DNA from: a virus
Length of the DNA: 29,503 nucleotides
Reading direction: 5' to 3' (one strand)
Virus record (IMG/VR): IMGVR_UViG_3300049893_000169
Span: 1-29,503 of that record
Below the pieces are notes generated by a model. That model worked only from the letters and a program-made list of their open reading frames with translations, was not told where the DNA came from and did no database searches. A program made the translations under genes and the position numbers. Shown piece by piece: positions 8,627 to 28,700 of the stretch. Within the stretch, counting starts at the first letter, position 1, and every line of letters starts with the position of its first letter.

Positions 8627-8636
8627 CAATGATAAT

Positions 8637-8647
8637 GAGCGTAATAT
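8637..8647 (+). promoter_or_regulatory. Late-gene motif copy 1 (GAGCGTAATAT)
   Basis: One-base variant of the 11-bp motif GAGCGTATTAT, located 38 bases before the portal start in a 59-base gap, preceded by GATAAT. Four other copies lie upstream of other late genes. Possible phage promoter element. Confidence 0.55.
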
Positions 8648-8685
8648 ATTGATAATTTTAAACGCCGAGAGGGCAAAAATAAAAT

Positions 8686-11220: not shown

Positions 11221-11224
11221 TAAT

Positions 11225-11235
11225 GAGCGTATTAT
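11225..11235 (+). promoter_or_regulatory. Late-gene motif copy 2 (GAGCGTATTAT)
   Basis: Exact copy, in the 38-base gap between the portal stop and the scaffold-like start, 23 bases before the ATG. It is followed by AAACCTAAACACAAAC, closely similar to the AACCTAAATAAC after copy 5, so the conserved unit extends beyond the core. Confidence 0.6.
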
Positions 11236-11258
11236 AAACCTAAACACAAACAAATACA

Positions 11259-12362: not shown

Positions 12363-12399
12363 ACAAAACAATTTATTAAAAACTTAAAAATTCAAAACA

Positions 12400-13851
12400 A
12401 TGCCTTATCCTAACAATACCACTGGTTCTACATTACCTTTTGGTTATTCAACTTCAGGAGCTGTAGACAAACCATACGTCTCCAATGGTAATTCCAGCTT
12501 AATCACTTCTACGTCTTTATTAGACCAACGTGATATTTACAAACAATTAGTAGACACTCAAGACGATGCTGAGTGGTTAGATTTCTTATGGTTAGCTGGT
12601 AAAAAAGAAACCACTTCTATGCCAATCTACTACAGTATGTATAATGACAAATTGTACAACTTGTTAGATTTAACAGGTGCTACAGTTACTGGTTCTGGTA
12701 CTACTACATTAGTTATTACTTTTGCTAATACTACAGCAGGTAATGCTTCTTATAACTTTATCTTAGACCGTGACTTAGTTAAAACAACTAACGGTAATGT
12801 AGGTCAAGTTTCTTTAAAAGGTGCTTCTGCTCGTCAAATCACTATTACATCTGTTGATGGTAGCAACTTAACTGCTGCTGCTGGTAACAAACTATCTGCG
12901 TTTTCAAATGCTCAACCTGAGGGTTCTGATGCTCCTGAACAACGTCGTTGGTTAGTTAACAAATTGACAAACCAAACTCAGATTTTCAGAAATACAATGA
13001 GAATTACTGACGTTCAAAATATGTCAAAAATTGAATTAGAATTCCAAGGTAAACCATATATCTTACCTTATGAAAACATTCAATCTTTACAAAAACACCG
13101 TGGTGATATTTCATTAGCATTGTGGTTAGGTCAAGCATCTTCTGCTACTTTCCAAGGTACTGCTTCTGTTAACTATCCTGCTGTTCAAGGTTATGCTACC
13201 CAAACTACTCGTGGTATGGATAGCTATATCACAAGCTATGGTATTAATGGTACAACTGGTACTTCTGGTGTATTTACTTTACCTGACTTAACTAACATTG
13301 AAGCTCAGTTAATCGCTGCTCGTTCTCCAATGGAGTATATGATTGCAGGTTCTAATGCAACTGTTGCTACTATCTCTGATTTCTTGAAAAACTTACCATC
13401 TTCTGGTGCTACTACAACTACTGTATCTGGTACTGCTTATCAAAATGGTGTTCAATCAGGTCGTATCAACATTGATGGTCGTGAAGTTGACTTAGAAGTT
13501 GAGAAATTCAAACATGGTGGATTTACTTTCAACTTGAAAGCGTTTAAAGTATTATCTAACCAAGATGTTATGGCTTACACAGGTTCAAGCGTAATTACAT
13601 CTGCTTACTTCATGCCAATGGGTAAAGTTAAAACTGTTGGTGGTGGAATGGCTGATTACTTCCGTTATCGTTACCAACCACAACCTACTCCAGGTTTAGG
13701 TTCTGCGGAAACTGCTGAAGTTATGACTGGTGCTCTTGCTCCAACTCCAACTAACCAAGAAATGAGTTTAACTACTACTTGGACTTCAAACATTGGATTG
13801 GAAGTATTTGCTCCTAACCGTTTTGCTAAAATCCAAGTTAGCGGATTCTAA
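12400..13851 (+). CDS. Major capsid protein
   Basis: A 483-residue protein following the scaffold, of the length typical for crAss-like HK97-fold capsid proteins. It is Thr/Ser/Gly/Ala-rich with many beta segments and no membrane region. Recognisable segments are RRWLVNKLTNQTQIFRNTMR (about 182-201) and MPMGKVKTVGGGMADYFRYR (about 406-425). Arginine is encoded mostly by CGT, and GGT/GCT/GTT codons dominate, unlike neighbouring genes that prefer AGA, which fits very high expression. It is followed by the strongest terminator in the window. The leader is A-rich and G-free, and expression probably begins at the motif at 11225. Confidence 0.85.
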   Translation: MPYPNNTTGSTLPFGYSTSGAVDKPYVSNGNSSLITSTSLLDQRDIYKQLVDTQDDAEWLDFLWLAGKKETTSMPIYYSMYNDKLYNLLDLTGATVTGSGTTTLVITFANTTAGNASYNFILDRDLVKTTNGNVGQVSLKGASARQITITSVDGSNLTAAAGNKLSAFSNAQPEGSDAPEQRRWLVNKLTNQTQIFRNTMRITDVQNMSKIELEFQGKPYILPYENIQSLQKHRGDISLALWLGQASSATFQGTASVNYPAVQGYATQTTRGMDSYITSYGINGTTGTSGVFTLPDLTNIEAQLIAARSPMEYMIAGSNATVATISDFLKNLPSSGATTTTVSGTAYQNGVQSGRINIDGREVDLEVEKFKHGGFTFNLKAFKVLSNQDVMAYTGSSVITSAYFMPMGKVKTVGGGMADYFRYRYQPQPTPGLGSAETAEVMTGALAPTPTNQEMSLTTTWTSNIGLEVFAPNRFAKIQVSGF

Positions 13852-13867
13852 TAAAAACAAAAGAAAA

Positions 13868-13897
13868 AAGGGGGATAGAAATATCCCCTTATTTTTC
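13868..13897 (+). terminator. Strong rho-independent terminator after the capsid gene
   Basis: GGGGGATA and TATCCCCT form a stem capped by the stable GAAA tetraloop, flanked by A on the 5' side and ATTTTTCTT on the 3' side. It lies 16 bases after the capsid stop and would end or attenuate the portal-scaffold-capsid transcript. Confidence 0.9.
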
Positions 13898-13932
13898 TTA
13901 CCTTTAACACAAACTAAAACACAAACAATTAT

Positions 13933-14811
13933 ATGGCACTTAAACATGTGGGCATCTACAATAATATTCCAGCGGAATATATGCCTAAATTACCTAAAAG
14001 AGGGACTATAGTTACTTATCGTTTCCTTGATTATTACAATGACCCTTTATCCGAAACAGATTTACCTGTATTTAAAGCTAAGCTTATGATACCTTGTTTT
14101 TCTCGTTTTTTTGATAAAACAAATAGCGAGTGGATTGAAATAGGGTTAGTATCTGGTGTTGATGCTTTTGGTAATGCAATTCCTACTATGATTAGAAGAG
14201 TATGGGTTGAACCACAAGCTAACGCAGGATATTTAAATTTAACAATTGGTAATGCTGCTGATGATGAATTATTCCAATATTTGGAATTAGCATCATTTAA
14301 TTTAGCTAACCCAAATAGAGATGAAAATGTTCATCCAATACTTGAAAGAGTTGACTTTGAAGCTGAAGCAAGAGAAGCTCGTAATGATTTAAGAAATAAA
14401 ATGGAAGCTATTAAGATTGCAGGTAATATTGCAAAAGAAGACTTACCACGTTTCTCATCATTATTGGGATATGAATTTGAAGGCTTAACAGAAGAAGAAG
14501 TACGTTTTAATATTGAAAGTTTTGCTCATGAAGATTCTGAATCTTTTATGGATAGAATTAAAGATAAACATTTTGATATTAAATCATATATATCATTAGC
14601 ATTAGATAAAGATGTTGTATATATAGATGAAGATGACAGAAAGTTGAAATGGTCTGATTCTAAAGGAGATATCATGAGATTAGTTGATGTTGACCAAGAT
14701 GAAGTAATTGACGCTTATGCTGCTTGGGCATCTAAAGAAAAAAATGGTAAAGACGTTCATCAAGAATTATTGTCTTTATTAAGTAAAACTAAAGCTAAAG
14801 CAAAAGCTTAA
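13933..14811 (+). CDS. Head-associated protein candidate, 292 aa
   Basis: The N-terminal ~130 residues look beta-rich (GTIVTYRFLDYYNDPLSETD; IPTMIRRVWVEPQANAGYLN), and the remainder is helical and acidic (FEAEAREARNDLRNKMEAIK; EEEVRFNIESFAHEDSESFM), ending in a Lys/Ala tail. It lies between the capsid terminator and a second terminator as a single-gene unit. I do not recognise the family. An auxiliary capsid or head-tail assembly protein fits the position. The leader (CTTTAACACAAACTAAAACACAAAC) is G-free, and no copy of the late motif is present before it, so it may be made by read-through. Confidence 0.6.
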   Translation: MALKHVGIYNNIPAEYMPKLPKRGTIVTYRFLDYYNDPLSETDLPVFKAKLMIPCFSRFFDKTNSEWIEIGLVSGVDAFGNAIPTMIRRVWVEPQANAGYLNLTIGNAADDELFQYLELASFNLANPNRDENVHPILERVDFEAEAREARNDLRNKMEAIKIAGNIAKEDLPRFSSLLGYEFEGLTEEEVRFNIESFAHEDSESFMDRIKDKHFDIKSYISLALDKDVVYIDEDDRKLKWSDSKGDIMRLVDVDQDEVIDAYAAWASKEKNGKDVHQELLSLLSKTKAKAKA

Positions 14812-14831
14812 GATTGTGTTTGTGTTGAAAT

Positions 14832-14864
14832 CTTGAACGGGGGAGTTTCTACTTCCCTTTCAAG
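14832..14864 (+). terminator. Extended hairpin after the 292-aa gene
   Basis: CTTGAA (14832-14837) pairs with TTCAAG (14859-14864), and inside it GGGAGT pairs with ACTTCCC with one bulge around a TTCT loop. There is no real T tract, so it may slow polymerase or protect an RNA end, in tandem with the true terminator at 14883. Confidence 0.55.
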
Positions 14865-14882
14865 TATTTCAATTAAAATTAT

Positions 14883-14914
14883 CCCTATGTGTTTAATACT
14901 CATAGGGTTTTTTT
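14883..14914 (+). terminator. Rho-independent terminator before the lysis genes
   Basis: CCCTATG (14883-14889) pairs with CATAGGG (14901-14907) around an 11-base loop and is followed by seven T. It ends three bases before the late-motif copy at 14917, which suggests that transcription stops here and restarts for the endolysin gene. Confidence 0.85.
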
Positions 14915-14916
14915 AT

Positions 14917-14927
14917 GAGCGTATTAT
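14917..14927 (+). promoter_or_regulatory. Late-gene motif copy 3 (GAGCGTATTAT)
   Basis: Exact copy starting two bases after the terminator T tract and ending five bases before the proposed endolysin ATG at 14933. It overlaps an upstream in-frame ATG (14915), which would make that start untranslated or part of the control region. Confidence 0.6.
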
Positions 14928-14932
14928 TTGTT

Positions 14933-15526
14933 ATGTTTGATAAACTTAAAGGTATTGTGCCTCAGGCACTTATTGACCAAATGCCAGCAAATGGTATTGA
15001 TACCCCATTAAGGGCTGCTCATTTCTTAGCACAAGTTGCTCACGAGTCAGGTGGGTTTAAATTTAAATCAGAAAATTTAAATTATAGTAAAGAGTCTTTA
15101 GTCAAAGTATTTCCAAAGTACTTTACAGCAGCATCAGCAGAAGCTTACCATAGACAACCTGAAAAAATAGCTAATAGGGTTTATGCAAATCGTATGGGTA
15201 ATGGTGATGAGAAAAGTGGAGATGGTTGGAAGTTTAAAGGCCGTGGATATATCCAGTTAACAGGTAAAGACAATTACAAACAATTTTCTCAAGATATAAA
15301 AAACAACGAAGTGTACGACAACCCAGATATAGTTGCCGATGATGAATTTGCAGGACTAAGTGCTATATGGTTCTGGAATAAAAATGGCTTAAGTAAAATA
15401 GCAGATACAGACAATTTGAGAGATGACAAAACATTAATCAAATTAACTACAAGAGTTAACGGTGGAACCCATGGACTGGCTGATAGATTAGAAAGATTTA
15501 ATAACTACAAAAAAATTTTATTGTAA
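14933..15526 (+). CDS. GH19-type endolysin (chitinase-like muramidase)
   Basis: I start at 14933 (MFDKLKGIVPQALIDQMPAN) because the in-frame ATG at 14915 lies within the regulatory motif; the longer form would add MSVLFV. The 197-residue protein has HFLAQVAHESGGF (30-42) with the likely catalytic Glu38, YANRMGNGDEKSGDGWKFKG (84-103), GRGYIQLTGKDNY (103-115) and TRVNGGTHGLADR (173-185). These are the signature segments of phage GH19 lysozyme-like endolysins, which cut peptidoglycan glycan chains. There is no signal peptide, so release depends on a holin, and candidates follow. It shares a TAATG junction with the next gene. Confidence 0.9.
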   Translation: MFDKLKGIVPQALIDQMPANGIDTPLRAAHFLAQVAHESGGFKFKSENLNYSKESLVKVFPKYFTAASAEAYHRQPEKIANRVYANRMGNGDEKSGDGWKFKGRGYIQLTGKDNYKQFSQDIKNNEVYDNPDIVADDEFAGLSAIWFWNKNGLSKIADTDNLRDDKTLIKLTTRVNGGTHGLADRLERFNNYKKILL

Positions 15527-15708
15527 TGGAAGTATCTACACACGACTCTTCAACAAACCATTATTGGTTATTAGCAAGTTTATTTTTAAATATTGTTGCT
15601 AATATTGACAAAACAAACATTACCTTTGCATTGGGTGTAATAGTATCAATACTTGCTATAATTAACTATGTTATCCAAATTAAAAAGAATCTTAAGCGTA
15701 AAAAATAA
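15526..15708 (+). CDS. Small membrane protein, holin candidate
   Basis: A 60-residue protein with two hydrophobic stretches, about residues 13-26 (HYWLLASLFLNIVANI) and 32-50 (ITFALGVIVSILAIINYVIQ), ending in a basic tail (KKNLKRKK). Size, topology and charged C-terminus fit a class II holin. It lies directly after the endolysin with a one-base TAATG overlap and three bases before the spanin candidate. This position makes it a better holin candidate than the protein at 1190. Confidence 0.65.
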   Translation: MEVSTHDSSTNHYWLLASLFLNIVANIDKTNITFALGVIVSILAIINYVIQIKKNLKRKK

Positions 15709-15711
15709 ATT

Positions 15712-16248
15712 ATGGGTACAAAAGCTATTTGTATATTCTTATTGGGCGTTATTATTAGCGTGCTTTATTCCTGTAGCCCTGTTAAAAGAGTGCTTAGTAG
15801 CCCTAAATATTATGACCAAGTTAAGAGGCAAGTTATCCTCCGTGGAGAATGCGCTAATGACACAGTTACGAAAGAAGTTATTATAGATAATGTACGCTAT
15901 AAAGATACAGTAATTCATGACAGCTTTAGAGTGTTAATGCCTGTAGAATGCCATTTAGATACCATAGTAAATGACTTTAGCGTTTATTTAGACAATGGGC
16001 AATTATGGGTTAAATGGTTGGGGAAAATACCTGTAAGAACCATTGAAAAAAAAACTACCCATGTCATTGTAGATAGAGCTAAAGAAGCTATTTTAATTGA
16101 TTCTTGTAAAGCTTTAGAGCTTAAATTATATGATAAAGAAAACCAGTTAGCAAGAAAAAATAAAACAATGTTAAAGCTATATTTAGGAATAGCTTTTTTA
16201 ATTTTATTTATGTTGAGAAAACCAATCCTTAGGGTTGTTGGTTTATAG
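15712..16248 (+). CDS. Unimolecular spanin candidate (lipoprotein with C-terminal membrane helix)
   Basis: The 178-residue protein begins with a lipoprotein signal MGTKAICIFLLGVIISVLYSC, with Cys21 in the lipobox LYSC, and ends with a membrane helix around 155-169 (KLYLGIAFLILFML) and a basic tip. Between them is a mostly beta-type periplasmic region, with Cys48, Cys81 and Cys130 as possible disulphide partners. An outer-membrane lipid anchor plus an inner-membrane helix in one chain is the definition of a u-spanin such as T1 gp11, which fuses the two membranes in the last step of lysis. The gene follows endolysin and holin candidates, completing a lysis cassette. No homologous sequence is recalled. 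Confidence 0.7.
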   Translation: MGTKAICIFLLGVIISVLYSCSPVKRVLSSPKYYDQVKRQVILRGECANDTVTKEVIIDNVRYKDTVIHDSFRVLMPVECHLDTIVNDFSVYLDNGQLWVKWLGKIPVRTIEKKTTHVIVDRAKEAILIDSCKALELKLYDKENQLARKNKTMLKLYLGIAFLILFMLRKPILRVVGL

Positions 16249-16255
16249 TCGTTTT

Positions 16256-16266
16256 GAGCGTATTAT
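16256..16266 (+). promoter_or_regulatory. Late-gene motif copy 4 (GAGCGTATTAT)
   Basis: Exact copy, 20 bases before the ATG at 16287, in a 38-base gap. Its 3' half forms a perfect inverted repeat GTATTAT-GTGAA-ATAATAC (16260-16278), which is not conserved at the other copies. Confidence 0.6.
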
Positions 16267-16286
16267 GTGAAATAATACCTATTTAG

Positions 16287-17006
16287 ATGACTAATATTTT
16301 TGACGTATATACATTTATAAATTTTATATGTGATAAAGACCGTAGAGGTTATTTGTCTCCTGACCAGGTATCTCAAGTATTAGACGCTGCCCAAACTAAT
16401 TTATTTCATTACTATTGGGGTTTACCAGCTACATCAACAGGCACTAAAGGTGGTGCACCTAATCCCGATTATGGTTCTAACCAATTAACTATAGATGCGT
16501 TAAGACCATTTAGAAAAAGACAAACAATTACAAATGCAGGCGTTACTGTAAATGGTGTAATTACAATAGGTACAACAATACCTGATTACGCTTATTTTAT
16601 AGGGTTAAACATATTAGATGGCACAACAGGTTTAGAAAACAATGTAGACCAATATCTTAACTCAGAGGTAGTAGATGCTTTAAAATCTACTCTTTATCCA
16701 GTTACACCTGATGCTCCTATATTTAGCTTTGATGGTAACTATATACAGTTGTATCCTCGTACGCAATTAGCTACTGGTAAGACTTTAGAAATACATTATT
16801 TGTGTCAGCCTACAACTCCTGTAATTGGATATACTATACCTCCAGGTTCAAATGCAATTGTATATGACCCTTTAACATCAACCCAATTGTTGTTTGGTAA
16901 AGAGTATTGGATGGAAATTATAGCAAGAGCATTGTCTTATATTGGTGTAAACTTGAGTGCTGAAGAAGTATCAGGATTAGCAAAAGAACAATTTGCAACA
17001 ACTTAA
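16287..17006 (+). CDS. Connector or ring-like tail protein, 239 aa
   Basis: Begins MTNIFDVYTFINFICDKDRR then GYLSPDQVSQVLDAAQTNLF, a helical start I recall from structural proteins of crAss-like and related Bacteroidota phages (vydFv.fi.nKDr.GylsP.qfn...q.A...lf). The middle is beta-rich and Thr-rich, and the C-terminal helix includes FGKEYWMEIIARALSYIGVN. The late motif lies just upstream. Position before two other small structural genes suggests the head-tail connector ring stack. No catalytic motif is visible. Confidence 0.65.
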   Translation: MTNIFDVYTFINFICDKDRRGYLSPDQVSQVLDAAQTNLFHYYWGLPATSTGTKGGAPNPDYGSNQLTIDALRPFRKRQTITNAGVTVNGVITIGTTIPDYAYFIGLNILDGTTGLENNVDQYLNSEVVDALKSTLYPVTPDAPIFSFDGNYIQLYPRTQLATGKTLEIHYLCQPTTPVIGYTIPPGSNAIVYDPLTSTQLLFGKEYWMEIIARALSYIGVNLSAEEVSGLAKEQFATT

Positions 17007-17016
17007 AAAGAATTAA

Positions 17017-17664
17017 ATGACTACTAAATCACAAATGATTGAAAGAATCCGAAGAGTGTTGTCAGGGGGTTACCCAAGCAATAGGGATAGGGTTAAAGAT
17101 GCAGAAATAGAAAAGCAATTAGAATCAGTAATAAACACTTTGCTTAAAGTAGAGATGTTTAATATGACGTTCAATGTTGATGGAGCTACTATTCCTGATG
17201 GAGTAATGATTGCTACATATGAAAACATTGAAGTAGTTGGAGGAATAGATGATACTTGTTTTGTTACACTTCCTGTAACGCCTATGTATCTTCCTGAGAA
17301 GATGGGTGTATTTAGTGTTTATCCTACAAGTTATCCACAACATGAATTTATACCAATACCTGCTGGACAATATTATATTTTACAACAAATTACAGAAGTT
17401 AATTCGTTGTTAGGTAGAGTGCCTTATGTATGGGACGGTAAAAAAATAACAATTTACAGAAATTTAATTGGTGATGGAATATTCACAGTTGATATGAAAT
17501 TAGCTATTGCAGACTTATCACAATATGGTCCTAATGACCCATTGCCTGTTTCTCCTGAATTGGAGGCACAAGCAATTGACGCAGTAGTTAAATTATACGT
17601 TGCTGAGATTAGAACTATCAGAGATGAAAGCTTCCAAGCATCACCAGAGGAATTTATAAAATAA
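17017..17664 (+). CDS. Connector or ring-like tail protein, 215 aa
   Basis: An N-terminal helical part (KSQMIERIRRVLSGGYPSNR; EIEKQLESVINTLLKVEMFN), a beta-rich centre (ENIEVVGGIDDTCFVTLPVT; WDGKKITIYRN) and a C-terminal helical part (ELEAQAIDAVVKLYVAEIRT). The helices-beta-helices plan is that of adaptor or ring proteins that sit between portal and tail in podoviruses, and the sequence style recalls crAss-like ring proteins. It is ten bases after the previous gene and six before the next, so all three are probably translated from one message. Confidence 0.65.
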   Translation: MTTKSQMIERIRRVLSGGYPSNRDRVKDAEIEKQLESVINTLLKVEMFNMTFNVDGATIPDGVMIATYENIEVVGGIDDTCFVTLPVTPMYLPEKMGVFSVYPTSYPQHEFIPIPAGQYYILQQITEVNSLLGRVPYVWDGKKITIYRNLIGDGIFTVDMKLAIADLSQYGPNDPLPVSPELEAQAIDAVVKLYVAEIRTIRDESFQASPEEFIK

Positions 17665-17670
17665 TAACTA

Positions 17671-18603
17671 ATGACACCTACAGGAGCTTTTGTAAGTTTA
17701 GACGAAATAATCAATGCGTGGTTGTTTAAGAATGGGAAAACCATTCACAACTACGCAAAGGTGCTTACATTTGCAGCAGAGGCAGTAAGAGAAATGTCTT
17801 ACACTTCTATGCAAATTGTTAATAATGTAATATTAGAAAGAGAAGATGACCAACAATGGTTTACACTTCCTGATGACTATTCGGATTGGTGTGCAGTAGG
17901 AATACGCGTAGGAAGCTATTGGAGACCACTTGGGGTTGAAACAGGTATTTTGCCTCAACCATATTTTGACGGCATTGGTGCGTACACAGAAGATGAATTT
18001 AGCCAAGTTCCTGGCCAAATGAATACATCAGGTAACTGGACCAACTGGGTTGGTTCTACAGGTGGTGTAGCTGACGATTTTTGGGACGAAGATTTTTTAA
18101 TTGATGACTTTGCTGCTCAAGCAAGAACAAGTCCTGTTTTGCCTCCTATTGCTGTGAGTAATAGTTCAATAACAAATACATACCTTCCTTATCAAGGATA
18201 TATGCCTTTCTTCTTCTCTGATTTATATAATGATTGGGGACAACAAAAAGGTAGATACTTTGGGTTTGGTGATGGTAATAGAGTAGACTCTGTTAACATT
18301 AATGAACAACAAGGTATTATAATGGTTCCTTTAGGGTTTCCTGGCAAGTTCTTATTCCTTTCTTATGTAGGTATAGGCAATGTTGACTCAATGAGTTTTA
18401 TCCCTAAGAAAGCACAAACTGCTATTGAAGCTTATATTACTTATAAAATGGCTTTGGTTAAACGTAACAGTTTACAAGAAGCAGGATTGAAAAAACAATT
18501 ATTTGACCAAGAGTTGAAATTGTTTAGAAGCAAAAACAATACTATGAGTATCACAGATGTTAAACGTAGCGTACAAAAAGCGTTTGGCAGAACAAGAGAG
18601 TAA
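17671..18603 (+). CDS. Connector or ring-like tail protein, 310 aa
   Basis: Begins MTPTGAFVSLDEIINAWLFK with helical segments (AKVLTFAAEAVREMSYTSMQ), then beta-rich segments (QQWFTLPDDYSDWCAVGIRV; GNRVDSVNINEQQGIIMVPL; FPGKFLFLSYVG) and a basic helical end (RNSLQEAGLKKQLFDQELKL). The plan resembles the previous gene, with a larger central insert (about 110-180) rich in Gly, Ser and Asp. A tail-ring or adaptor role is inferred from the plan, the position and similarity in style to crAss-like virion proteins. Confidence 0.65.
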   Translation: MTPTGAFVSLDEIINAWLFKNGKTIHNYAKVLTFAAEAVREMSYTSMQIVNNVILEREDDQQWFTLPDDYSDWCAVGIRVGSYWRPLGVETGILPQPYFDGIGAYTEDEFSQVPGQMNTSGNWTNWVGSTGGVADDFWDEDFLIDDFAAQARTSPVLPPIAVSNSSITNTYLPYQGYMPFFFSDLYNDWGQQKGRYFGFGDGNRVDSVNINEQQGIIMVPLGFPGKFLFLSYVGIGNVDSMSFIPKKAQTAIEAYITYKMALVKRNSLQEAGLKKQLFDQELKLFRSKNNTMSITDVKRSVQKAFGRTRE

Positions 18604-18605
18604 TT

Positions 18606-19694
18606 ATGACTATAACAAGTTTATTAAATAAAATTTTTAAAGCAAACCAAACTCCCAACAATACTGTAAATTGGTCGGGAGTTAATGGTTTGAAAACAAT
18701 TCAAGAAGATTTAGTAGAAGAAATAAGACAAAGGACTTTTTTAACTATTCCTACTATAGGTGATTTAGCTAATCAAGGGTTTAGTAATGCCGTTTTATGT
18801 TATGTTCAAAATGGAGCATTTTATAGATGGAGTGCTACAGGCACACCAAATGGTATAACAATATTTGCAGCAGTTGACGGAGGAGTTTGGATACAAGAAA
18901 CAATAGCAACTCCAGGTGCAGGTATAACATCATTAAATGGTTTAAATCAAGCTGTACAAACATTTGCAGTAGGAACATCAGGAATAGATTTTAATATATC
19001 AAGTGTATTATCAACCCATACTTTTAATTTACCAACTTCCTCAAATGTTAATAGAGGGGCTTTGAGTTCAACAGATTGGACTATGTTTAATGATAAACAA
19101 AATGCTATAACTCTTACAACTTTAGGCACAAGTGGTCCATCCACATTAGTTGGTTCAACTTTAAATATTCCCAATTACAACACTTCTTCATCTGTAAAAT
19201 CTTATGGAGCTTGGCAACATAATGTTACACAAACTGCTGCTGTAAATAACACGGGGTATGGTGTTAGGTTTGATGTAGGCGATATCATAGGTCAAGGTGT
19301 TGATATTCAGCCAGATTCTTTAGGAAATAATACATTGATTAAAATGAATAATGCTGGAACATATAACATTCAGTTTAGTTTTCAGTTTCAAAATATAGAC
19401 AATGCTGAACAAGATGTTACTATTTGGTTGAGAAAAAATGGACAAAATACAGCGGCAGACGTTGCAGGCTCAGGAGGTTTTATTTCTGTACCTAAAACCC
19501 ATGGTGGTGGTGGTGGCACGCCAGGTCATTCTATAGCCGCTTGGAATTATTTTGTAGAAGCTAATGCAGGAGATTACTTTCAATTAGTTTGGTCTACATC
19601 AAGTGCGGCTAATGTAACTATGCAATATTATGCAGCAGGTAGCCCACCGCCTTCATCAGCATCAGCAATTTTAACAGTAAATCAAGTCAATTAA
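18606..19694 (+). CDS. Fibre-like receptor-binding protein with TNF/C1q-like tip
   Basis: Residues 1-100 (LLNKIFKANQTPNNTVNWSG; GLKTIQEDLVEEIRQR; then a beta part ending GGVWIQE) are an attachment domain shared with the next two proteins. A fibre-like linker follows (GAGITSLNGLNQ; IPNYNTSSS). The C-terminal ~165 residues (KSYGAWQHNVTQTAAVNNTG; AGTYNIQFSFQFQNID; DVTIWLRKNGQNTA; AGDYFQLVWSTSS) have the strand pattern of trimeric C1q/TNF-like tips of phage receptor-binding proteins. It probably attaches to the tail through the N-terminus and contacts the cell with the C-terminus. There is no signal peptide or enzyme motif. Confidence 0.7.
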   Translation: MTITSLLNKIFKANQTPNNTVNWSGVNGLKTIQEDLVEEIRQRTFLTIPTIGDLANQGFSNAVLCYVQNGAFYRWSATGTPNGITIFAAVDGGVWIQETIATPGAGITSLNGLNQAVQTFAVGTSGIDFNISSVLSTHTFNLPTSSNVNRGALSSTDWTMFNDKQNAITLTTLGTSGPSTLVGSTLNIPNYNTSSSVKSYGAWQHNVTQTAAVNNTGYGVRFDVGDIIGQGVDIQPDSLGNNTLIKMNNAGTYNIQFSFQFQNIDNAEQDVTIWLRKNGQNTAADVAGSGGFISVPKTHGGGGGTPGHSIAAWNYFVEANAGDYFQLVWSTSSAANVTMQYYAAGSPPPSSASAILTVNQVN

Positions 19695-19695
19695 A

Positions 19696-19706
19696 GAGCG
19701 TATTAT
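19696..19706 (+). promoter_or_regulatory. Late-gene motif copy 5 (GAGCGTATTAT)
   Basis: Exact copy beginning two bases after the stop of the first fibre gene and ending 20 bases before the next ATG at 19727. It is followed by AACCTAAATAACATCAC, similar to the sequence after copy 2. Confidence 0.6.
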
Positions 19707-19726
19707 AACCTAAATAACATCACATT

Positions 19727-20167
19727 ATGTTTATTACAACATTACTAAATAAAATATTTAATGCCAACCATACACCTAACAATACGGTGAATTGGACAGG
19801 CACTAATGGACTTAAATTTATACAAGACGATATAGTAGAAGAGATTCGTGCCAGAGGCTGTATTGTTGTTCCAAGTACAACTGATTTAAACAATCAAGGT
19901 AAAAGCAATTCACAAAACGCTATAGTTCAAGGTATTGGGTTGTATACTTGGTACCCTGCTCCTTTAACTGCTATTTCATTTTATATAGTAGGTGCTAACG
20001 ATGGTGGATTTTGGGTATTACAACAACCAAATGTTAGATTTTTACCTGACTTAGGCGCTTCAGTTCCAGCAACAAACGCTTCAGGTATTGTTTTATACAA
20101 TAGCGGAAATGCATTAAAATATATAACCTCAACAGGTGCAATTAAAACAGTAACAGTAACTCCTTAA
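19727..20167 (+). CDS. Short fibre-like protein, 146 aa, shared N-terminal domain
   Basis: The first 95 residues (FITTLLNKIFNANHTPNNTV; GLKFIQDDIVEEIRARG; then ISFYIVGANDGGFWVLQ) match the attachment domain of the preceding 362-residue protein over its whole length. After it there are only about 45 residues (LGASVPATNASGIVLYNSGN; TSTGAIKTVTVTP), much shorter than the TNF-like tip of the neighbour. It could be an adaptor or plug, or the remnant of a fibre that lost its tip. The frame is intact with clean start and stop, and it has its own late motif, so it is probably used. Confidence 0.65.
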   Translation: MFITTLLNKIFNANHTPNNTVNWTGTNGLKFIQDDIVEEIRARGCIVVPSTTDLNNQGKSNSQNAIVQGIGLYTWYPAPLTAISFYIVGANDGGFWVLQQPNVRFLPDLGASVPATNASGIVLYNSGNALKYITSTGAIKTVTVTP

Positions 20168-20170
20168 TAT

Positions 20171-21058
20171 ATGGCAACTTTATCTACATTACAAAACTTT
20201 ATAGACAACATAAAACAAACTCCTTCAGGCAAAGTTGAATGGTCAGACATTTCATTAAAAGGTCTTGAAGAAGAAGTGCTAAACTTGTTTTCAACCAATG
20301 CTTTTCAATTAGCTGCAAATGTTATTAACTTACAAACCTTATCAGGTGTTGACTCTCAATTAGCTGTAGTTGAAGCTGATGCTGATGTTACCAAGAATGG
20401 TATGTACTTTTGGGCATCTACACAAGTTGTTGTTGGTTTTAACTATCCTGCAACTGGTGGTGGATATTGGAATTTAATTAAAAATGCAACTACTGCTCCT
20501 GTATCTCAAATAGTTGCTGGAACTAACATTACTGTATCTCCTGCTGGTGGTACTGGTGTTGTAACTGTAAACGCACCAAATTTAGCTACAACAAACCCTA
20601 CTAATTTGTTTGTTCCATATAGAATAAGTGGCACTCAATTTGGTGATAGTCCTATTAAATGGGATACTACATTATTCCCTGAGTTATCTACAAGATATTT
20701 AGGACAAGCAAAAGGTTTTTATTTTGCTTATAATATTGACCAATATATTTTTGGTAATACAACAAATAAAATGGAATTTAATGGTAATAATTTATTATAT
20801 AGTACCACTAATTCTGTTCTACAAGGTTTATATTTTGAAACAGCTAATGATGTATTTTTAATAGGAGGTGGACAATCTGCTGGTCCAAATAGTGCATCTT
20901 CAATAGGTGTTTGGCGTCCAAATACTACTGCCGATACATCTATGTTTGTAGGTAATTCAATAACAGTTGCTTCAAATGCTTCAACATTATCAGGTAGAAA
21001 AATTAAAGTATTCATACCTACTGTAGGATATAAATATATCCAATTATATGATAACTAA
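20171..21058 (+). CDS. Fibre-like tail protein, 295 aa, divergent shared N-terminal domain
   Basis: The N-terminus (LSTLQNFIDNIKQTPSGKVE; WSDISLKGLEEEVLNLF; then GGGYWNLI near residue 95) follows the same pattern as the two preceding fibre proteins, though more diverged. A short fibre segment follows (QIVAGTNITVSPAGGTGVVT, a motif frequent in phage fibres), then a beta-rich C-terminal domain (RYLGQAKGFYFAYNIDQYIF; GLYFETANDVFLIGGGQSAG) unrelated to the TNF-like tip. It probably contributes a different receptor-binding surface. It starts three bases after the previous stop. Confidence 0.65.
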   Translation: MATLSTLQNFIDNIKQTPSGKVEWSDISLKGLEEEVLNLFSTNAFQLAANVINLQTLSGVDSQLAVVEADADVTKNGMYFWASTQVVVGFNYPATGGGYWNLIKNATTAPVSQIVAGTNITVSPAGGTGVVTVNAPNLATTNPTNLFVPYRISGTQFGDSPIKWDTTLFPELSTRYLGQAKGFYFAYNIDQYIFGNTTNKMEFNGNNLLYSTTNSVLQGLYFETANDVFLIGGGQSAGPNSASSIGVWRPNTTADTSMFVGNSITVASNASTLSGRKIKVFIPTVGYKYIQLYDN

Positions 21059-21068
21059 ATAAAGCTTA

Positions 21069-24000
21069 ATGGCTCAAATAACAAAACTTTTTACAAAAGG
21101 TTTAGATACTGATACGGCTCCCCACTTGCAAGAGAAGGAGTCGTATTCTTCTGCTATGAATGTCCATATTGCTCTTGATAACATATATGGAGCAAGTGAT
21201 GGCACAGCTACATCAATGAACGATTATAATGATTTAGGTAATGATGGGCTATTAGAAGAATTTGCTGGCAATACCAATTGGTCTGATGTATTAGATACAA
21301 TTGGAGTATTTAACTATACTATGCCAGGAGCTAAATGTGTAGGTTATGCAGTAGACGAAACAGAAAATAATCTTACTCAAACAAGATGGATATATTTATT
21401 TTTATATACTCCGTATGCAAGTCCAACTTTGCCTGAAAATTCATGGGTAGTTAAAATTGCTGTAGAGTATAATACAGCAACTAATAAACCTGAAATAAAC
21501 CCTTCTAACTCTAAGATATTATTATCAGGGTTACAAGTAGAACCTGTTGATATATATGGCCCATTAGTAGATGGCATAGGGTTTAATCAAGAGACTATTG
21601 TCATTGCTAAAACAATAAATGATTTATTAATATTTACTGATGGAGTTCATCCTCAAAGGTACTTAAATGTCAACTTTGATTATAATACATTTTTTACTTC
21701 AACACAATTAACACAAGCTCAGTTTTCTTTAATTACAGAACCTCCTCAAGTTCCATTAGCTCCATTAAGAGAATGGATTGATGACGACCCTGTTTCACCT
21801 AATTGGGGTGTTGTATTTTATACAGGTGACCCAAGATATGGTACTACTGTACAAAAGAATGCATATCAATGTACATATAGGGTTACCAATACTGATAATT
21901 TAATATCAGTACTTGCTCCTTATTCTTTTACAAGTTTACCAGCTTATCAAGAAGATATTAACGTAGACCCATTTGTTGGTAATCGTATAACTGTTCAAAT
22001 ACCTAAAGACCAATCATTCTTACCTAATACAAAATCAATAGATATTGTATTTAAAGACTTGCAAACTAATGTCCATAGTATAGTAAGAACATTTGATATT
22101 AACGACCAAACAGTAAGAAGTTATTTTATACAAGGAACTTTTGGTCCTTATAACTATACAGATGCTGAAGCCATTGCAGCCCATAATGACCCAGGTAATC
22201 CATTCTATTTATATTTCAATGGTTGGTCAGGAACTGAAGTTTTAGAGACCATTGACTCTGTAACTTATGCAAAGCAATTTGACTCAATACCTGTTGCTTC
22301 AGAAGCATTAGAAATATCAAGTAATAGATTGTTTTTAGCAAATAATTTAGATGGATATACTGCTACAACAACTGTACCTGAAGTAACATTTGATTTAAAT
22401 AGCTACGCATATACAACTACACAAACAGCCAGTTATTGGAATTCTTATATTGCTATTGTGGGCGTTGATGAAACAGGTGGTGGCGGTGCTGCTACTAAAT
22501 ATTGGTACACACAAGTAGTTCATGATACTACTACCAATGATGTGTATTTAATTCCTACTGAATACAATACAACAGGATATTGGTTTAGTACAGATGGTGC
22601 AAGTTATGTTTACCCTGTAACTCCAAATCAAAATATACCACAATTTCTTTCTAAAAAAACTTTAAAATTTTTAGTTAATGTACCTGGGGGTGTATTTACT
22701 AATGACATAATTGATAACATTGTATATTCTACAAATCCTTCTTTAGCACAACCAGCATCTAATATTGTATGGAGTGGGTTAAAAGCGTTTAACAACAGAC
22801 CTTCTGCTCCTGGATATGTATTAAGAATTTTAGATGATGCTCCATATAAATCTGGTATTAAATATCAAGCATTTTTACCAAATGCAAGCTATGATTATGG
22901 AATACAATTTTATGATAGGGCATTAAGAAAATCAGGGGTTACTAAAATAGGTTCATTTGATGTTCCTATTTATAATTGTGACAACAAAACGCTTTATGAA
23001 AAAGCAGCAATAACAATGCCTTCTGGACCACAAAGCTCAGATATTATTCCCGATTGGGCATATTACTATTCTATAGTAATGAGTAAAAATAGTAAAGCAT
23101 CAAGTTTTGTATCATTTATACCAACAGCTGTTAAGTTTGCATATAAAAACGCAAATGGAGTTATAGTTTATGACCAAGACGAAAGAGACACTAAATTAAC
23201 TTATTATGGGTTAGCTATACCTTTAAGTACATTATCAGCAGACGGCATTGGATATGATTACACTCAGGGCGATATTTGTGAAATTCAAATTACAAGTGGT
23301 GGCCCTTCTTCTCCTTTGCCTACGGTAAATACATCTGTATCAGGCCCTGTGTTAGCTGTTCAAGATGGATATGCAATTGTGTTGATAGACAAAGATTTGG
23401 TATATCCATATGTGTCTTATCAAACTCGTACTATTCAAATGAATAATACAACACCTGCAACAGCAACTTTATTTAATTCTATTGTTGGTAATTGTCAGGC
23501 TCAATTTTATGTTACATTATTAACCCCACAAACAGAAACTAAACAGTTATATGAAGTTGCTTCATTCGGTTCAATTAACAGAAGCGGCGGTGCAGGTGCA
23601 TATGAATTTGGTAATTTCTATACTTCGTTTTATTTTGGTGGCTCTACAACATGTTATTTAATTGGCGATACTTATACCCAATCAAGAGATGGTTCAGGTG
23701 CATTAGTTGGATTATCTACTAATACATATGATAAAGGATTCCAATTCTGGGTAGAAAACATATCAAGATTATGTCCTTATGATAGGGTAGGACAAAAAAA
23801 ACTTACTAATCAAATAAGATATTCTAATGTTATTATACCTAATTCATCAATTAATGGGTTGTCTACATTTGATGCATTAGACCAAAAATCTGTAGACATA
23901 TCAGCAGGCCCTATTACTACAATTATTCAATCATCTAAAGAAGCTAATATGGCTGCTCGTATGTTAATACTTTGCAGAAATAATACATTTATTGCTTTAA

Positions 24001-25016
24001 TATCACAACAACAAATTTATAGCCAAGACCAAACAGCAGCATTTACTTCATCTGCTGATGTGTTGGGTAGCATTACACCTTTAACAGGGCAATGGGGTTG
24101 TATTAGCCCAAGAGCCGTTGTTAACTACAAAGGGGTTACATTTTGGGCAGATGCTATTAATAGAGATATAATTCAATTTGCAGGTGATGGTGCTACACCT
24201 ATAGGCCAACAAAAAGCAGCTTACTTATGGCAACAAGTGTTTAAGAATCTACCATATGAAAATACTATAGTAGAACCAGGCATTACTGACTTTATGAATA
24301 CTGCTAAATATATGAGTATGGGTATTAATCCTTATACTTCAGAAATATTTATTAGTGTACCTAAACCGCCTTCTGAATTACCATTAGTTCCAAAGTTATA
24401 TCCAGCTGATTGCGATGAGAATAGAATAAACCAATATATAATTGATAAAAATGTTAGTTATGTATATAACTATCAAAAAAATTGTTGGATTGGTGCATAC
24501 GAACAATATCCTAATTTATGGATAAGATTGGGTGATGATACTTACTCTATTGGAGATGGTAATTTGCCAGACACAGGTCTTAAATTATTTCAAGAATTTA
24601 ATGGCCAAATAGGTGAGTTTCAACAAGAAACTAATGGCTGTTGGGTAGCTTTCCCAATGTCGGAAGCTTATCCTAAAACATTAGAACCATTGAACATTAT
24701 ATTAATGGGGCAAATGACACTTAATACAGTTATTGTATATGGTAGAGACGTTGCTACTAATGTAAACAATAATCTAACCCAAATTACTAAAATATACGAT
24801 AGTGACTTCCAAATGAGAGAAGGAGAAATGTTCTCAACTGTTTATAGAAATAGATTAAGTAATGGGGCAACTACATCACCAGAGTTTATACAACAAAACG
24901 TAATAGGCGATAGGTTAAGAATGAAAGTTCCTTTTGTACAGATTAATTTCCAAACAGGACAACAAATTAATTTACAAGGAGCAAGGTTAGAATTAAAACC
25001 AAGTTCAGGACACTAA
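21069..25016 (+). CDS. Large muzzle or tail-hub-like virion protein, 1315 aa
   Basis: Begins MAQITKLFTKGLDTDTAPHL and continues KESYSSAMNVHIALDNIYGA, a start I recall from large tail proteins of crAss-like phages, where the muzzle closes the tail tip (pattern KGl..D..p.l...e.y..a.Nvr). The rest is almost entirely beta-rich, with many Tyr/Thr/Asn/Ser and repeated immunoglobulin- or propeller-like stretches (for example RMLILCRNNTFIALISQQQI and WGCISPRAVVNYKGVTFWAD). There is no membrane segment. It is the last gene on this strand before a terminator. The exact name depends on a structural match I cannot make. Confidence 0.7.
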   Translation: MAQITKLFTKGLDTDTAPHLQEKESYSSAMNVHIALDNIYGASDGTATSMNDYNDLGNDGLLEEFAGNTNWSDVLDTIGVFNYTMPGAKCVGYAVDETENNLTQTRWIYLFLYTPYASPTLPENSWVVKIAVEYNTATNKPEINPSNSKILLSGLQVEPVDIYGPLVDGIGFNQETIVIAKTINDLLIFTDGVHPQRYLNVNFDYNTFFTSTQLTQAQFSLITEPPQVPLAPLREWIDDDPVSPNWGVVFYTGDPRYGTTVQKNAYQCTYRVTNTDNLISVLAPYSFTSLPAYQEDINVDPFVGNRITVQIPKDQSFLPNTKSIDIVFKDLQTNVHSIVRTFDINDQTVRSYFIQGTFGPYNYTDAEAIAAHNDPGNPFYLYFNGWSGTEVLETIDSVTYAKQFDSIPVASEALEISSNRLFLANNLDGYTATTTVPEVTFDLNSYAYTTTQTASYWNSYIAIVGVDETGGGGAATKYWYTQVVHDTTTNDVYLIPTEYNTTGYWFSTDGASYVYPVTPNQNIPQFLSKKTLKFLVNVPGGVFTNDIIDNIVYSTNPSLAQPASNIVWSGLKAFNNRPSAPGYVLRILDDAPYKSGIKYQAFLPNASYDYGIQFYDRALRKSGVTKIGSFDVPIYNCDNKTLYEKAAITMPSGPQSSDIIPDWAYYYSIVMSKNSKASSFVSFIPTAVKFAYKNANGVIVYDQDERDTKLTYYGLAIPLSTLSADGIGYDYTQGDICEIQITSGGPSSPLPTVNTSVSGPVLAVQDGYAIVLIDKDLVYPYVSYQTRTIQMNNTTPATATLFNSIVGNCQAQFYVTLLTPQTETKQLYEVASFGSINRSGGAGAYEFGNFYTSFYFGGSTTCYLIGDTYTQSRDGSGALVGLSTNTYDKGFQFWVENISRLCPYDRVGQKKLTNQIRYSNVIIPNSSINGLSTFDALDQKSVDISAGPITTIIQSSKEANMAARMLILCRNNTFIALISQQQIYSQDQTAAFTSSADVLGSITPLTGQWGCISPRAVVNYKGVTFWADAINRDIIQFAGDGATPIGQQKAAYLWQQVFKNLPYENTIVEPGITDFMNTAKYMSMGINPYTSEIFISVPKPPSELPLVPKLYPADCDENRINQYIIDKNVSYVYNYQKNCWIGAYEQYPNLWIRLGDDTYSIGDGNLPDTGLKLFQEFNGQIGEFQQETNGCWVAFPMSEAYPKTLEPLNIILMGQMTLNTVIVYGRDVATNVNNNLTQITKIYDSDFQMREGEMFSTVYRNRLSNGATTSPEFIQQNVIGDRLRMKVPFVQINFQTGQQINLQGARLELKPSSGH

Positions 25017-25791: not shown

Positions 25792-28700
25792 TTAATCGTT
25801 GTTTTCGTCTAATTCTAAATTGTCAATATATGAACCACCATAGAATGCTGCTTCCCATATACTGTCTTCTCTAATGATATCCCCTAATACTTCAGCTATA
25901 TCATCTTCTTTCATACCTAATGTTCTCATAGCCTGTACTTTACGGTTCATTTTATAGCAAACATCTTTTAAAATATCTAAATCTTTAAAGTATGTTTTTT
26001 GTCTTACAGCACCTGCTTTACCAGAGTACAAAGGTTTGATTAAGTTATGAAGTAACTTTCTTGGGTTCTCTTCATAATACGTCCTTCCGTAGGCAGCAGA
26101 CTGTAATTCAATCAACATTTGTTTGTCTAATGGTTTACCTTCTGTAACCTCACCTGTTCTTTGATTTACCTTATCTTGACTCTTCTCGTACATTTTAAGA
26201 GCCTTAGTGATAAACGTAGGGGCCAAGGTTTGTACTGAATGGTATAACATTGCAGCACCTTTTTTCCCAAAGAAGTCAGCCTCTTCGTTATAGATAGGTA
26301 ACCCTGTGTATGGGTTTTGGTTTTTAACTAAATCTAAAACATTAGATACACCCATCTCAACACCTAAGTATTCATCATATAAAGAAGAAACACCACCTGT
26401 AAGTTTATTATAAAAACCTCTTTCTGGTCTATAGATGATACTTCTTGGGATAGCAGTAAACACAGCAAATGGATCTACAGAAGATACGTCTTGTCTCATG
26501 AATTTACCTTCACCTAATAGTTTAAAGTCTAATTGGTGGTTTTGTTCAAACTCTCTTGACACTTCTCTTAATGCCTCATCTATACTCATACCGCCATTTA
26601 CTTTAGCTTGGTACAATCTGTACATCTCAGCAGCAAGGTTTCTGTTTTTATTCATAAACCCTTCAGTAGTAAATCCTGGTTTAGTAGACACTTGTACTGA
26701 TTGATTGTTATCTGTTTCAGCGTTTTCATCATCATCGTCTCCACCGCCAAGACCTGCCATAGCAAGTAATGAAGAACCTAATCCACCAAAGTAAGGAACT
26801 ACTTGGCTCATTACACCGCTCCAACCAATAAGGCCTGCTAATGTATGGGCTCTTTGTTCTACATTTAATGCTTTTAAAAACTCGCTGTTTTCTTTCTCGT
26901 CCTCAAATACTTTAAACGCTTTGCTTTCATAAGTTTTATTAATAGTAGCAACATTACCTAATTGTTGTAAGAATATTCTCATAGACTCAGCAACAAACCT
27001 TGGGAAGTCACCACCAAATATTAATGTTAATGCATCTTTAGTTGCAGCAGCTCCTTTACCAGCAACAGACTTACCTTTATAAGTAGTCTTCTTAGGCATA
27101 TTAGCTACAATAGGAGCTACCCTGTCAGAAGTCACCATTGATATATTAGTTTGGTGTCCTGCCATTCTATTGATTTGAGCCATTTGCTCAGGCTTAATCT
27201 TGCTTATAATCTCATTGTATAATGGGTGAGCAGGATTAGGGTTAGCTAAAGTATTGTAAGAAAGACCACTTGGTAAACCAGCAGCTACCGCAAGCTTATT
27301 AGCAAGGTGATTTCTTGACGTAGTAAATGAAGTTAATTTAGGTAATATATCGGCCCATATATATGACTGAACAGCTCCATCTTTAACCCATCTTCCTAAG
27401 TTACATACATAGTTCTTATAGAAGTATGACCAACCTTCAGCTTCGCTTTTCTCAAACGCTTTCATTAATACTGTATCCTTAGAAATTTTACCAAAGGTTT
27501 CTTTAGCCCAATCAGTATTAACTGTTTGGAATAGACCTAATTTCTCAGCATCATCAATTGCAGTATCCCAGAAGTTATAGAATTTACTACCAAGGTTTTT
27601 ACCTGGCAATGACTTCATATATTCAAAGTCTGATTTAGATACACCATTCTTAATGTTAGCAAAGAATTTAGTAGCTGAACCATTTACCAATAAGAAAGAA
27701 CCGTTACCAAAGAAGTTTCTAATAGGTCCAAACAAAATATTAAATGCTGTTTTACCAATTAATACCCAACCCCTAATAGAATAGATAGTGCTTATTTCAG
27801 CATCAGTACCAAATGCAAACTCATATAACTCAGGTTTAACCCAAGTGCCAATGAATGGACCAAATCTTGTTTGAGGTGTACCTTCGTTAGTACCATCAAT
27901 ATTAACCCATCCGTCTTTTTTAAGTTGCTCTCTTTGCTTAGCAGTTATTTGAACATCATTATAAACAAAGCCATCACCTTTAGCCAATGTATAAACATCG
28001 TTTAAGAACTTCATTCTTGATGTCATATTAACCAAGTTACTAACTGTCATTTGATAGTTCATAACAGGGTCTTTAATCTCACCATATACATCTCTCATCC
28101 ACTCAGGGAACTCAGCCTCTGTTAAACGCTTTTTAAGGGTTGCCATTTGAATTTGAGAACCAGTATAAGGGTTAAGTGAGCTTGATGTTTCTGGAGCGTC
28201 TAATAGGTCTTGTAGTCCTTTTTCTGCTAAGTCATAGGTTGCAGCATCTAACACAGGAAACTCAGCAGCAAGCTTAGCTTGAAGTGGGTTTAATTGTGCA
28301 GTTACATCAGCTATGTCTTTTTGTATTTTAGCTATAGTTGCTTGTGCTTGTTGTTGGTTTTGTCTTTGTGGCAATTGTTGTTGCTTAAGAGCTAATCTGC
28401 TATTTAAAGCATTTAGTCTTGTCTCTAATTTATAAGCCGCTTTCTCGTCTCTATTGTATTCTTTCCATCTGTCGTATAAAGGTACATACCCAGCCATAGT
28501 TTGTGGCTCTTGATAGAAACCTTCTTGAACCCAAGTATAGAATCCTCTAACAGCTCTGTCTCTAACAGCAGGGTCTAAGTTATTAGCAAACTTCTCCCAA
28601 GCCTTTTCTTTCAAGGTAAACTTCTTGTATTGTCTTCTTAAATGGTTACCAAGACCTTTATCAAATGCTTCGGCAGTAGAAAGCTTCAACCAACCAGAAC

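What the first reader, a model, noticed from the sequence alone, without database searches (positions are those of the whole stretch)
18606..21058. Three tandem fibre genes sharing an attachment domain but with different tips
The first ~95 residues of the proteins starting at 18606, 19727 and 20171 follow one pattern (LLNKIF.AN.TPNNTVNW.G / GLK.IQ.D.VEEIR / GG.W). The C-termini are a TNF/C1q-like tip, a 45-residue stub, and an unrelated beta domain. This points to duplication with tip replacement, giving a phage several receptor-binding options on one tail site.
Basis: partly seen in the sequence, partly recalled or inferred. Interest (0 to 1): 0.6.

Follow-up and report, generated by a model that had tools for sequence, protein, structure and literature searches.

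The report
Three-gene tail-fibre slot, swapped between phages
A freshwater-type phage carries three neighbouring tail genes that begin with the same attachment domain; comparison with close relatives shows the first of them, with its receptor-binding tip, is repeatedly swapped between phages while the other two keep fixed roles, which is a clear new example of a known way for phages to change what they bind.

Summary
Genes A (18606-19694), B (19727-20167) and C (20171-21058) share a ~100-residue N-terminal domain (A/B 54%, E 1e-29; A/C and B/C 25-26%, E ~1e-5; 0 of 2000 shuffles). A ends in a C1q/TNF-like tip. In every relative spanning the slot (R3 - A - B - C - muzzle) exactly three such domains occur, as A-, B- and C-type paralogues, so the duplication is old and the three look like non-equivalent parts, not recent spares. 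B is no decayed stub: it is conserved over its whole length (143-179 aa). C keeps its C-terminal end. Exchange is concentrated in A: L083, 92% identical to the window over 3.8 kb, breaks 10 bases into A and continues into a different, split fibre cassette; L094/L095 and G4/G6 break at A's start, taking A's N-domain along; G6/G8 breaks behind it. One imported cassette is 66-71% identical to cyanophage and HMO-2011 virion proteins. So: an adhesin-exchange slot on an old triplicated anchor, known in kind. Unexpectedly, R3 and the muzzle gene carry conserved coding-region RNA hairpins about 45 nt after their start codons. Attachment, trimerisation and receptor binding were not testable.

The parts
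18606..19694 (+). Gene A, 362 aa: N-terminal shared domain (aa ~1-100), fibre-like linker (~101-199), C1q/TNF-like tip (~200-362). The exchangeable slot.
   Evidence: ORF; N-domain alignment; tip by tblastn and Foldseek; allele swaps
18606..18905 (+). Shared N-terminal domain of A (predicted helix-helix-short helix-four strands, pLDDT mostly 50-77)
19203..19691 (+). C1q/TNF-like tip of A (predicted beta jelly roll, pLDDT mostly 63-90)
19727..20167 (+). Gene B, 146 aa: shared N-terminal domain plus a conserved ~45-aa C-terminus; orthologues 143-179 aa in all spanning relatives
20171..21058 (+). Gene C, 295 aa: divergent copy of the N-domain, short middle, conserved C-terminal end; orthologues 487-686 aa through extra repeat-like sequence
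18606..18615 (+). Left exchange boundary: similarity to the 92%-identical strain L083 ends here
   Evidence: blastn 14807-18615 vs L083 1-3808, 91.9%; sliding identity
17671..18603 (+). R3, ring-like virion protein directly upstream of the slot (label from position and elemo phage gp26 homology; no match to crAss001 ring proteins)
21069..25016 (+). Muzzle/nozzle-like protein, 1315 aa, directly downstream of the slot
   Evidence: elemo gp25 hhalign E 9e-40; crAss001 gp44 N-terminal ~150 aa, probability 80%, E 1.5e-5
17716..17756 (+). Conserved 16-bp RNA hairpin inside the R3 coding sequence (codons 16-29)
   Evidence: 11 distinct sequences, 176/176 cells paired, 3 covarying pairs; codon-preserving z -4.4 to -8.0 in this clade; sense strand favoured
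21069..21167 (+). First 33 codons of the muzzle gene: nearly invariant at nucleotide level, two predicted RNA hairpins
   Evidence: rank 1 of 1006 windows W/L095; MFE -23.0 vs -9.8 +/- 2.8 in 2000 synonymous versions, none as low

Best explanation
The locus is the adhesin slot of a podovirus-like phage related to Flavobacterium 'elemo' phages, lying between the last ring-like gene and the muzzle-like gene. An old triplication gave three proteins with one attachment domain. SHOWN by sequence: the shared domain, the constant three-copy set, the C1q/TNF-like tip, and repeated replacement of A by recombination while the neighbouring virion genes stay the same. INFERRED: the N-domain docks each protein to the tail near the ring/muzzle junction, probably as trimers; A is the receptor-binding fibre, carried as one chain (window, L095, G6, G9) or as several proteins presumably joined end to end (L083, L094, L092, G4, G8); B is a short constant appendage or plug; C is a constant spike whose length varies. 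Swapping A changes which host surface is recognised without disturbing the rest of the tail.
For: Homology of the three N-domains. Exactly three per record in all eight records that span the slot (G004, G006, G007, G008, G009, G016, G017, G019, of which G006/G007 and G016/G017 are near-duplicates), with A- and C-type clades supported 97/100 and 100/100. Gene-by-gene identities: window/L083 R1-R3 92-98% but A 38%; L094/L095 TER-R3 89-99% but A 44%; G4/G6 R2-R3 92-96% but A 39%; L092/G4 R1-R3 68-79% but A 93, B 98, C 98%. DNA breakpoints at the start of A (window/L083, L094/L095, G4/G6) or 493 nt inside A (G6/G8). L083's next gene is 89% identical to the 403-aa protein of G4, which matches PHROG tail-fibre families; so do the 1279- and 1856-aa distal proteins. 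G8's cassette protein is 66-71% identical to virion proteins of cyanophages and HMO-2011. The A tip is kept on single-chain and split versions alike: 44-68% identity. Tip fold: PDB BxpB E 4e-7 and 4-1BBL/TNF; phage C1q proteins in BFVD E to 1e-19.
Against: No structural or experimental evidence that the N-domain binds the tail; it matches nothing in PHROGs, Pfam or PDB nor any crAss001 fibre or hub protein. The C model is poor (pLDDT 36), so fold identity of the C N-domain rests on sequence and on a matching order of helices and strands at low confidence. Several records are fragments; the right-hand end of the swap is unseen for the window/L083 pair because L083 ends 941 bases into the slot. 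A type-B clade is not separately supported.
Confidence: 0.8

Rival explanations
1. One reading: three interchangeable receptor-binding fibres on the same site, made by recent duplication and tip replacement, giving one phage several receptor options.
For: Shared N-domain and different C-termini in one genome; multi-RBP phages with shared anchors are known (PMC6872550).
Against: One each of A, B and C type in all spanning genomes and old clades; B has only ~45 residues after the N-domain and is conserved over its length; C's end is conserved; only A is swapped against a constant backbone.
Confidence: 0.12
2. A, B and C are subunits of one composite appendage: the related N-domains form a hetero-oligomeric collar (as the A2B docking hub of crAss001 does with other proteins) and only A extends into a fibre. 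This is a variant of the best explanation that differs in how the three are assembled.
For: Constant three-member set, short B, adjacency and conserved order; crAss001 uses a heterotrimeric fibre hub (PMC10172136).
Against: No sequence similarity of the N-domain to crAss001 THA, THB or gp22. C is long in relatives, unlike a hub subunit.
Confidence: 0.25
3. The proteins sit on the head, not the tail (head fibres).
For: Some matches of the swapped cassette proteins carry the PHROG category 'head and packaging'.
Against: The slot is between ring-like and muzzle-like genes in every genome that has it; the same cassettes match several tail-fibre families; that PHROG category is given to many undefined virion proteins.
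Confidence: 0.08
4. The apparent swaps are assembly chimeras of metagenomic contigs.
For: All relatives are uncultured contigs; L083 is only 4.7 kb.
Against: The split cassette occurs in several records from different samples (L083, L094, L092/L093, L053, G4) and the break recurs at the same point on different backbones; reading frames and gene order are intact.
Confidence: 0.04

Closest known systems
Modular receptor-binding proteins of Klebsiella podoviruses (KP32-, KP34-viruses) and the G7C anchor-branched system (PMC6872550)
   Same: Conserved N-terminal attachment module, exchangeable distal part, several RBP genes in tandem next to the tail genes, horizontal transfer as the motor of change.
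   Different: There the second RBP attaches through a short peptide to a T4gp10-like domain on the first; here all three proteins carry the same anchor domain and no gp10-like domain was found by Pfam. In three swaps here the anchor moves with the gene.
Shared host-recognition modules of Alteromonas phages A5, V22 and P24 (PMC10579305)
   Same: Tail-fibre cassette shared by very different phages; the G8 cassette is likewise shared with cyanophages and HMO-2011.
   Different: No chaperone was identified here; the 97-109-aa gene after long A fibres could be one but its tested copy matches no PHROG family.
crAss001 tail (gp34/35/40/43 rings, gp44 muzzle, gp38/39 hub, gp22 fibre; PMC10172136)
   Same: Order ring - muzzle and weak similarity of the muzzle N-terminus.
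   Different: In crAss001 the fibre gene gp22 lies near the portal gene, not between ring and muzzle; no ring, hub or fibre homology found.
Flavobacterium phage elemoA (Elemovirus)
   Same: Same order terminase - portal - capsid - ring-like - muzzle-like; homologous gp25 and gp26.
   Different: gp26 is followed directly by gp25; no A/B/C slot there.
C1q/TNF-like trimeric domains of phage fibres and Bacillus exosporium proteins (BxpB, BclA)
   Same: Predicted fold of A's tip.
   Different: Below 20% identity to the solved structures listed; ligand unknown.

Membership tests
Modular phage receptor-binding fibre (anchor plus exchangeable distal part) | Conserved N-terminal module shared among otherwise different fibre proteins | tested here: met
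Modular phage receptor-binding fibre (anchor plus exchangeable distal part) | Distal part or whole gene exchanged on a constant virion backbone | tested here: met
   Met for A; not seen for B and C on their own
Modular phage receptor-binding fibre (anchor plus exchangeable distal part) | Homotrimeric and virion-attached | not testable with these tools
   Only monomer prediction offered; no proteomics
Modular phage receptor-binding fibre (anchor plus exchangeable distal part) | Binds a cell-surface receptor | not testable with these tools
   Needs binding assays
C1q/TNF-like tip domain | Beta jelly-roll fold of the C1q/TNF superfamily | tested here: met
   Tip pLDDT mostly 63-90; Foldseek to BxpB and TNF-family ligands, E 4e-7 to 1e-5; no Pfam C1q hit by sequence
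Anchor-branched multi-RBP system (G7C, KP32) | T4gp10-like branching domain on the anchored RBP | tested here: not met
   No Pfam family at E <= 0.1 in A or B, none relevant in C
crAss001-type tail-fibre docking (gp22 on THA/THB hub) | Homologues of gp22, gp38, gp39 | tested here: not met
   hhalign of the N-domain profile against all three: probability below 1%; a fold-level likeness is not excluded
Crassvirales | Muzzle protein homologous to gp44 | tested here: inconclusive
   N-terminal ~150 aa only, 80% probability, E 1.5e-5
Crassvirales | Several paralogous ring proteins homologous to gp34/35/40/43 | tested here: inconclusive
   Three ring-sized genes in the right place, but no profile match to the crAss001 proteins
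Elemovirus-like flavobacterial phages | Homologous terminase, portal, ring-like and muzzle-like proteins in the same order | tested here: met
   TerL 30% over 94% of query, portal 27% over 86%; gp26, gp25

The most novel reading that the evidence does not exclude
The adhesin slot is bracketed by cis-acting RNA elements that lie inside coding sequence: a 16-bp hairpin in R3 and a double hairpin in the muzzle gene, both with their main stem starting about 45 nt after the start codon and kept against synonymous drift, which set the relative expression of ring, fibre and muzzle proteins (or serve as fixed joints when fibre cassettes are exchanged).
Probability: 0.35. Interest if true: 0.65.

Novelty: new member of a known kind. 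Interest (0 to 1): 0.45.

Why it matters
It gives a base-resolution picture of how an uncultured flavobacterial-phage-like group changes its adhesins: near-identical phages that differ in one gene cassette, with breakpoints at one start codon. It also separates what is exchanged (A) from what is fixed (B, C), which corrects the usual reading of tandem fibre genes as spare receptor options. The RNA hairpins in R3 and the muzzle gene, if confirmed, would be a new regulatory feature of phage late genes.

Tried and rejected
An A-based scan of viral contigs found nothing because its peptide patterns were too specific; MCP, R2 and N-domain scans worked. The N-domain is not in PHROGs, Pfam or PDB and not in bacterial genomes by pattern. 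I first labelled the neighbours as crAss rings; profile comparison to crAss001 does not support homology, so the label is positional. PDB profile search of the muzzle-like protein gave nothing. Idea that the invariant start of the muzzle gene is a homology arm left by exchange: unlikely as the sole cause, because both flanks of the 99 bases differ strongly between window and L095 or G6, which would need repeated conversion of just that stretch; RNA-level constraint fits better. Hairpin in A and B: thermodynamic signal present, but in shifted registers, so not claimed as one conserved structure. The C model was too poor for a fold search.

Full report
Observation. The three genes are present as described. 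Their first ~100 residues are homologous: A/B 53 of 99 identical (E 1e-29), A/C 26 of 100 (2e-5), B/C 25 of 102 (9e-6), and no shuffled sequence of 2000 reached the observed scores. A profile of 15 such domains from five genomes aligns throughout, with 11 invariant columns.

Setting. The window is a 29.5-kb virus record. Its genes run terminase, portal, capsid, three ring-sized genes, A, B, C, a 1315-aa muzzle-like gene, then genes on the other strand. Terminase and portal are closest, among named phages, to Flavobacterium elemo phages and Cellulophaga phages. The muzzle-like protein is homologous to the elemoA virion protein gp25 and weakly to crAss001 gp44; R3 to elemoA gp26. I use 'R1-R3' and 'muzzle' as positional labels, since ring homology to crAss001 was not found. 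In distant relatives R3 is usually followed directly by the muzzle gene, as in elemoA and the sister contig L098: the slot is an insertion point.

The set of three. A capsid-based scan gave 31 close relatives and an R2-based scan more. Every record that spans the slot holds exactly three N-domains in the order A, B, C. A- and C-type domains are separate clades with support 97/100 and 100/100; B is consistent with one group but not resolved. The duplications therefore precede the spread of this group. B is conserved over its full length (51-85% identity, 143-179 aa). C keeps N-domain and C-terminal end, while its middle varies from almost nothing (window, 295 aa) to long repeat-like tracts (487-686 aa).

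Exchange of A. Three near-identical pairs of backbones carry unlike A genes: window/L083 (R1-R3 92-98%, A 38%), L094/L095 (terminase to R3 89-99%, A 44%), G4/G6 (R2-R3 92-96%, A 39%). DNA similarity ends 10 bases into A for window/L083 and at A's start for the others. Here the N-domain is exchanged with the gene (45-53% identity). In a fourth pair, G6/G8, A's first 493 bases stay ~90% identical and the distal part is replaced. In the opposite sense L092 and G4 share A, B, C at 93-98% although their ring genes are only 68-79% identical; that shared tract runs into the first ~1.2 kb of the muzzle gene.

Forms of A. Single chain with C1q/TNF-like tip: window 362 aa, L095 433, G6/G7 999, G9 1064. 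Split cassette: ~250-aa anchor protein, 403-aa protein, then a 1279- or 1856-aa protein ending in the same type of tip (G4, L092/L093; partial in L083, L094, L053). The split proteins match PHROG tail-fibre families. Third form, G8: 228-aa anchor, 109 aa, more than 357 aa, 590 aa, without the C1q tip; its proteins have relatives in the same slot of the distant phage L026 and the 357-aa piece is 66-71% identical to virion proteins of Synechococcus myoviruses and Puniceispirillum phage HMO-2011.

Structure. A is predicted with two helices, a short helix and a small beta element in the N-domain, a disordered linker and a well-predicted beta jelly roll at 201-362. The tip matches BxpB of the Bacillus exosporium, TNF-family ligands and many phage C1q proteins. 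C is badly predicted, but the order of elements in its N-domain is the same. Trimers could not be modelled.

Mechanism. Shown: one old domain in three fixed copies; repeated replacement of A on constant backbones; fibre and C1q/TNF-type content of the A cassettes. Inferred: the domain docks the proteins to the tail near ring/muzzle; A is the receptor-binding fibre; B and C are constant appendages or collar parts. The claim of several receptor options at once remains untested and is less likely than division of labour.

Unexpected RNA signal. The first 99 bases of the muzzle gene are identical between window and L095 and between window and G6, against means of 71% and 67% elsewhere; they are the most conserved of 1006 and 347 codon-aligned windows. 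Rare codons there build two hairpins, MFE -23.0 against -9.8 +/- 2.8 for 2000 synonymous versions, none as low. In a scan of 540 coding windows of the record, two overlapping windows at the start of R3 rank first and second (z -5.9), the start of the muzzle gene third (z -4.8) and the start of A fourth (z -4.0). The R3 hairpin (17716-17756) pairs in all 176 cells of 11 distinct sequences, with double changes at three pairs (7-35, 9-33, 18-28), has codon-preserving z of -4.4 to -8.0 in this clade, and scores 65-71 bits on the sense strand and at most 23 on the other. The R3 and muzzle main stems start about 45 nt after the start codon; A and B also show structure at that distance, C, portal and others little. 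Rfam has no match. Counts are small and function is unknown, but structure at RNA level is well supported for R3.

Verdict. A well-documented adhesin-exchange locus: a new member of a known kind, with an old triplicated anchor domain as its particular feature, and an unexplained RNA feature next to it.

Noticed in passing
window 17716-17756: 16-bp RNA hairpin in the R3 coding sequence with compensatory changes in relatives; no Rfam family.
   Followed up: partly
window 21069-21167: First 33 codons of the muzzle gene are frozen at nucleotide level and fold into two hairpins built from rare codons.
   Followed up: partly
window 6608-18603: Mosaic genome: terminase to o203 are closer to the L041 group (capsid 75%) than to the G4 group (62%), but R2 is 80% to G4 and 53% to L041, so a head/tail module switch lies around 15.7-16.3 kb.
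   Followed up: partly
window 15712-16248: The 178-aa gene before R1 is unusually variable between near-identical strains (72-93% where most neighbours are 92-100%); possibly another surface protein.
   Followed up: no
L078:13628-13918 and L077:8255-8575: A 97-109-aa gene follows the long A fibres but is missing behind the short ones (window, L095); a candidate fibre chaperone with no family match.
   Followed up: no
window 25792-29503: Large minus-strand ORF running off the record, ~21-22% identical to 1954-2342-aa proteins of relatives; function unknown.
   Followed up: no
L014:8456-9006, L020:5345-5901, L027:8531-9089, L031:8653-9197: Distant relatives carry a pair of small proteins (86-98 aa) in the same R3-muzzle gap; possible docking or fibre-base proteins.
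   Followed up: no
G008 (record of L060): 61,581-base record whose ends overlap by 89 bases: probably a complete genome of this group.
   Followed up: no
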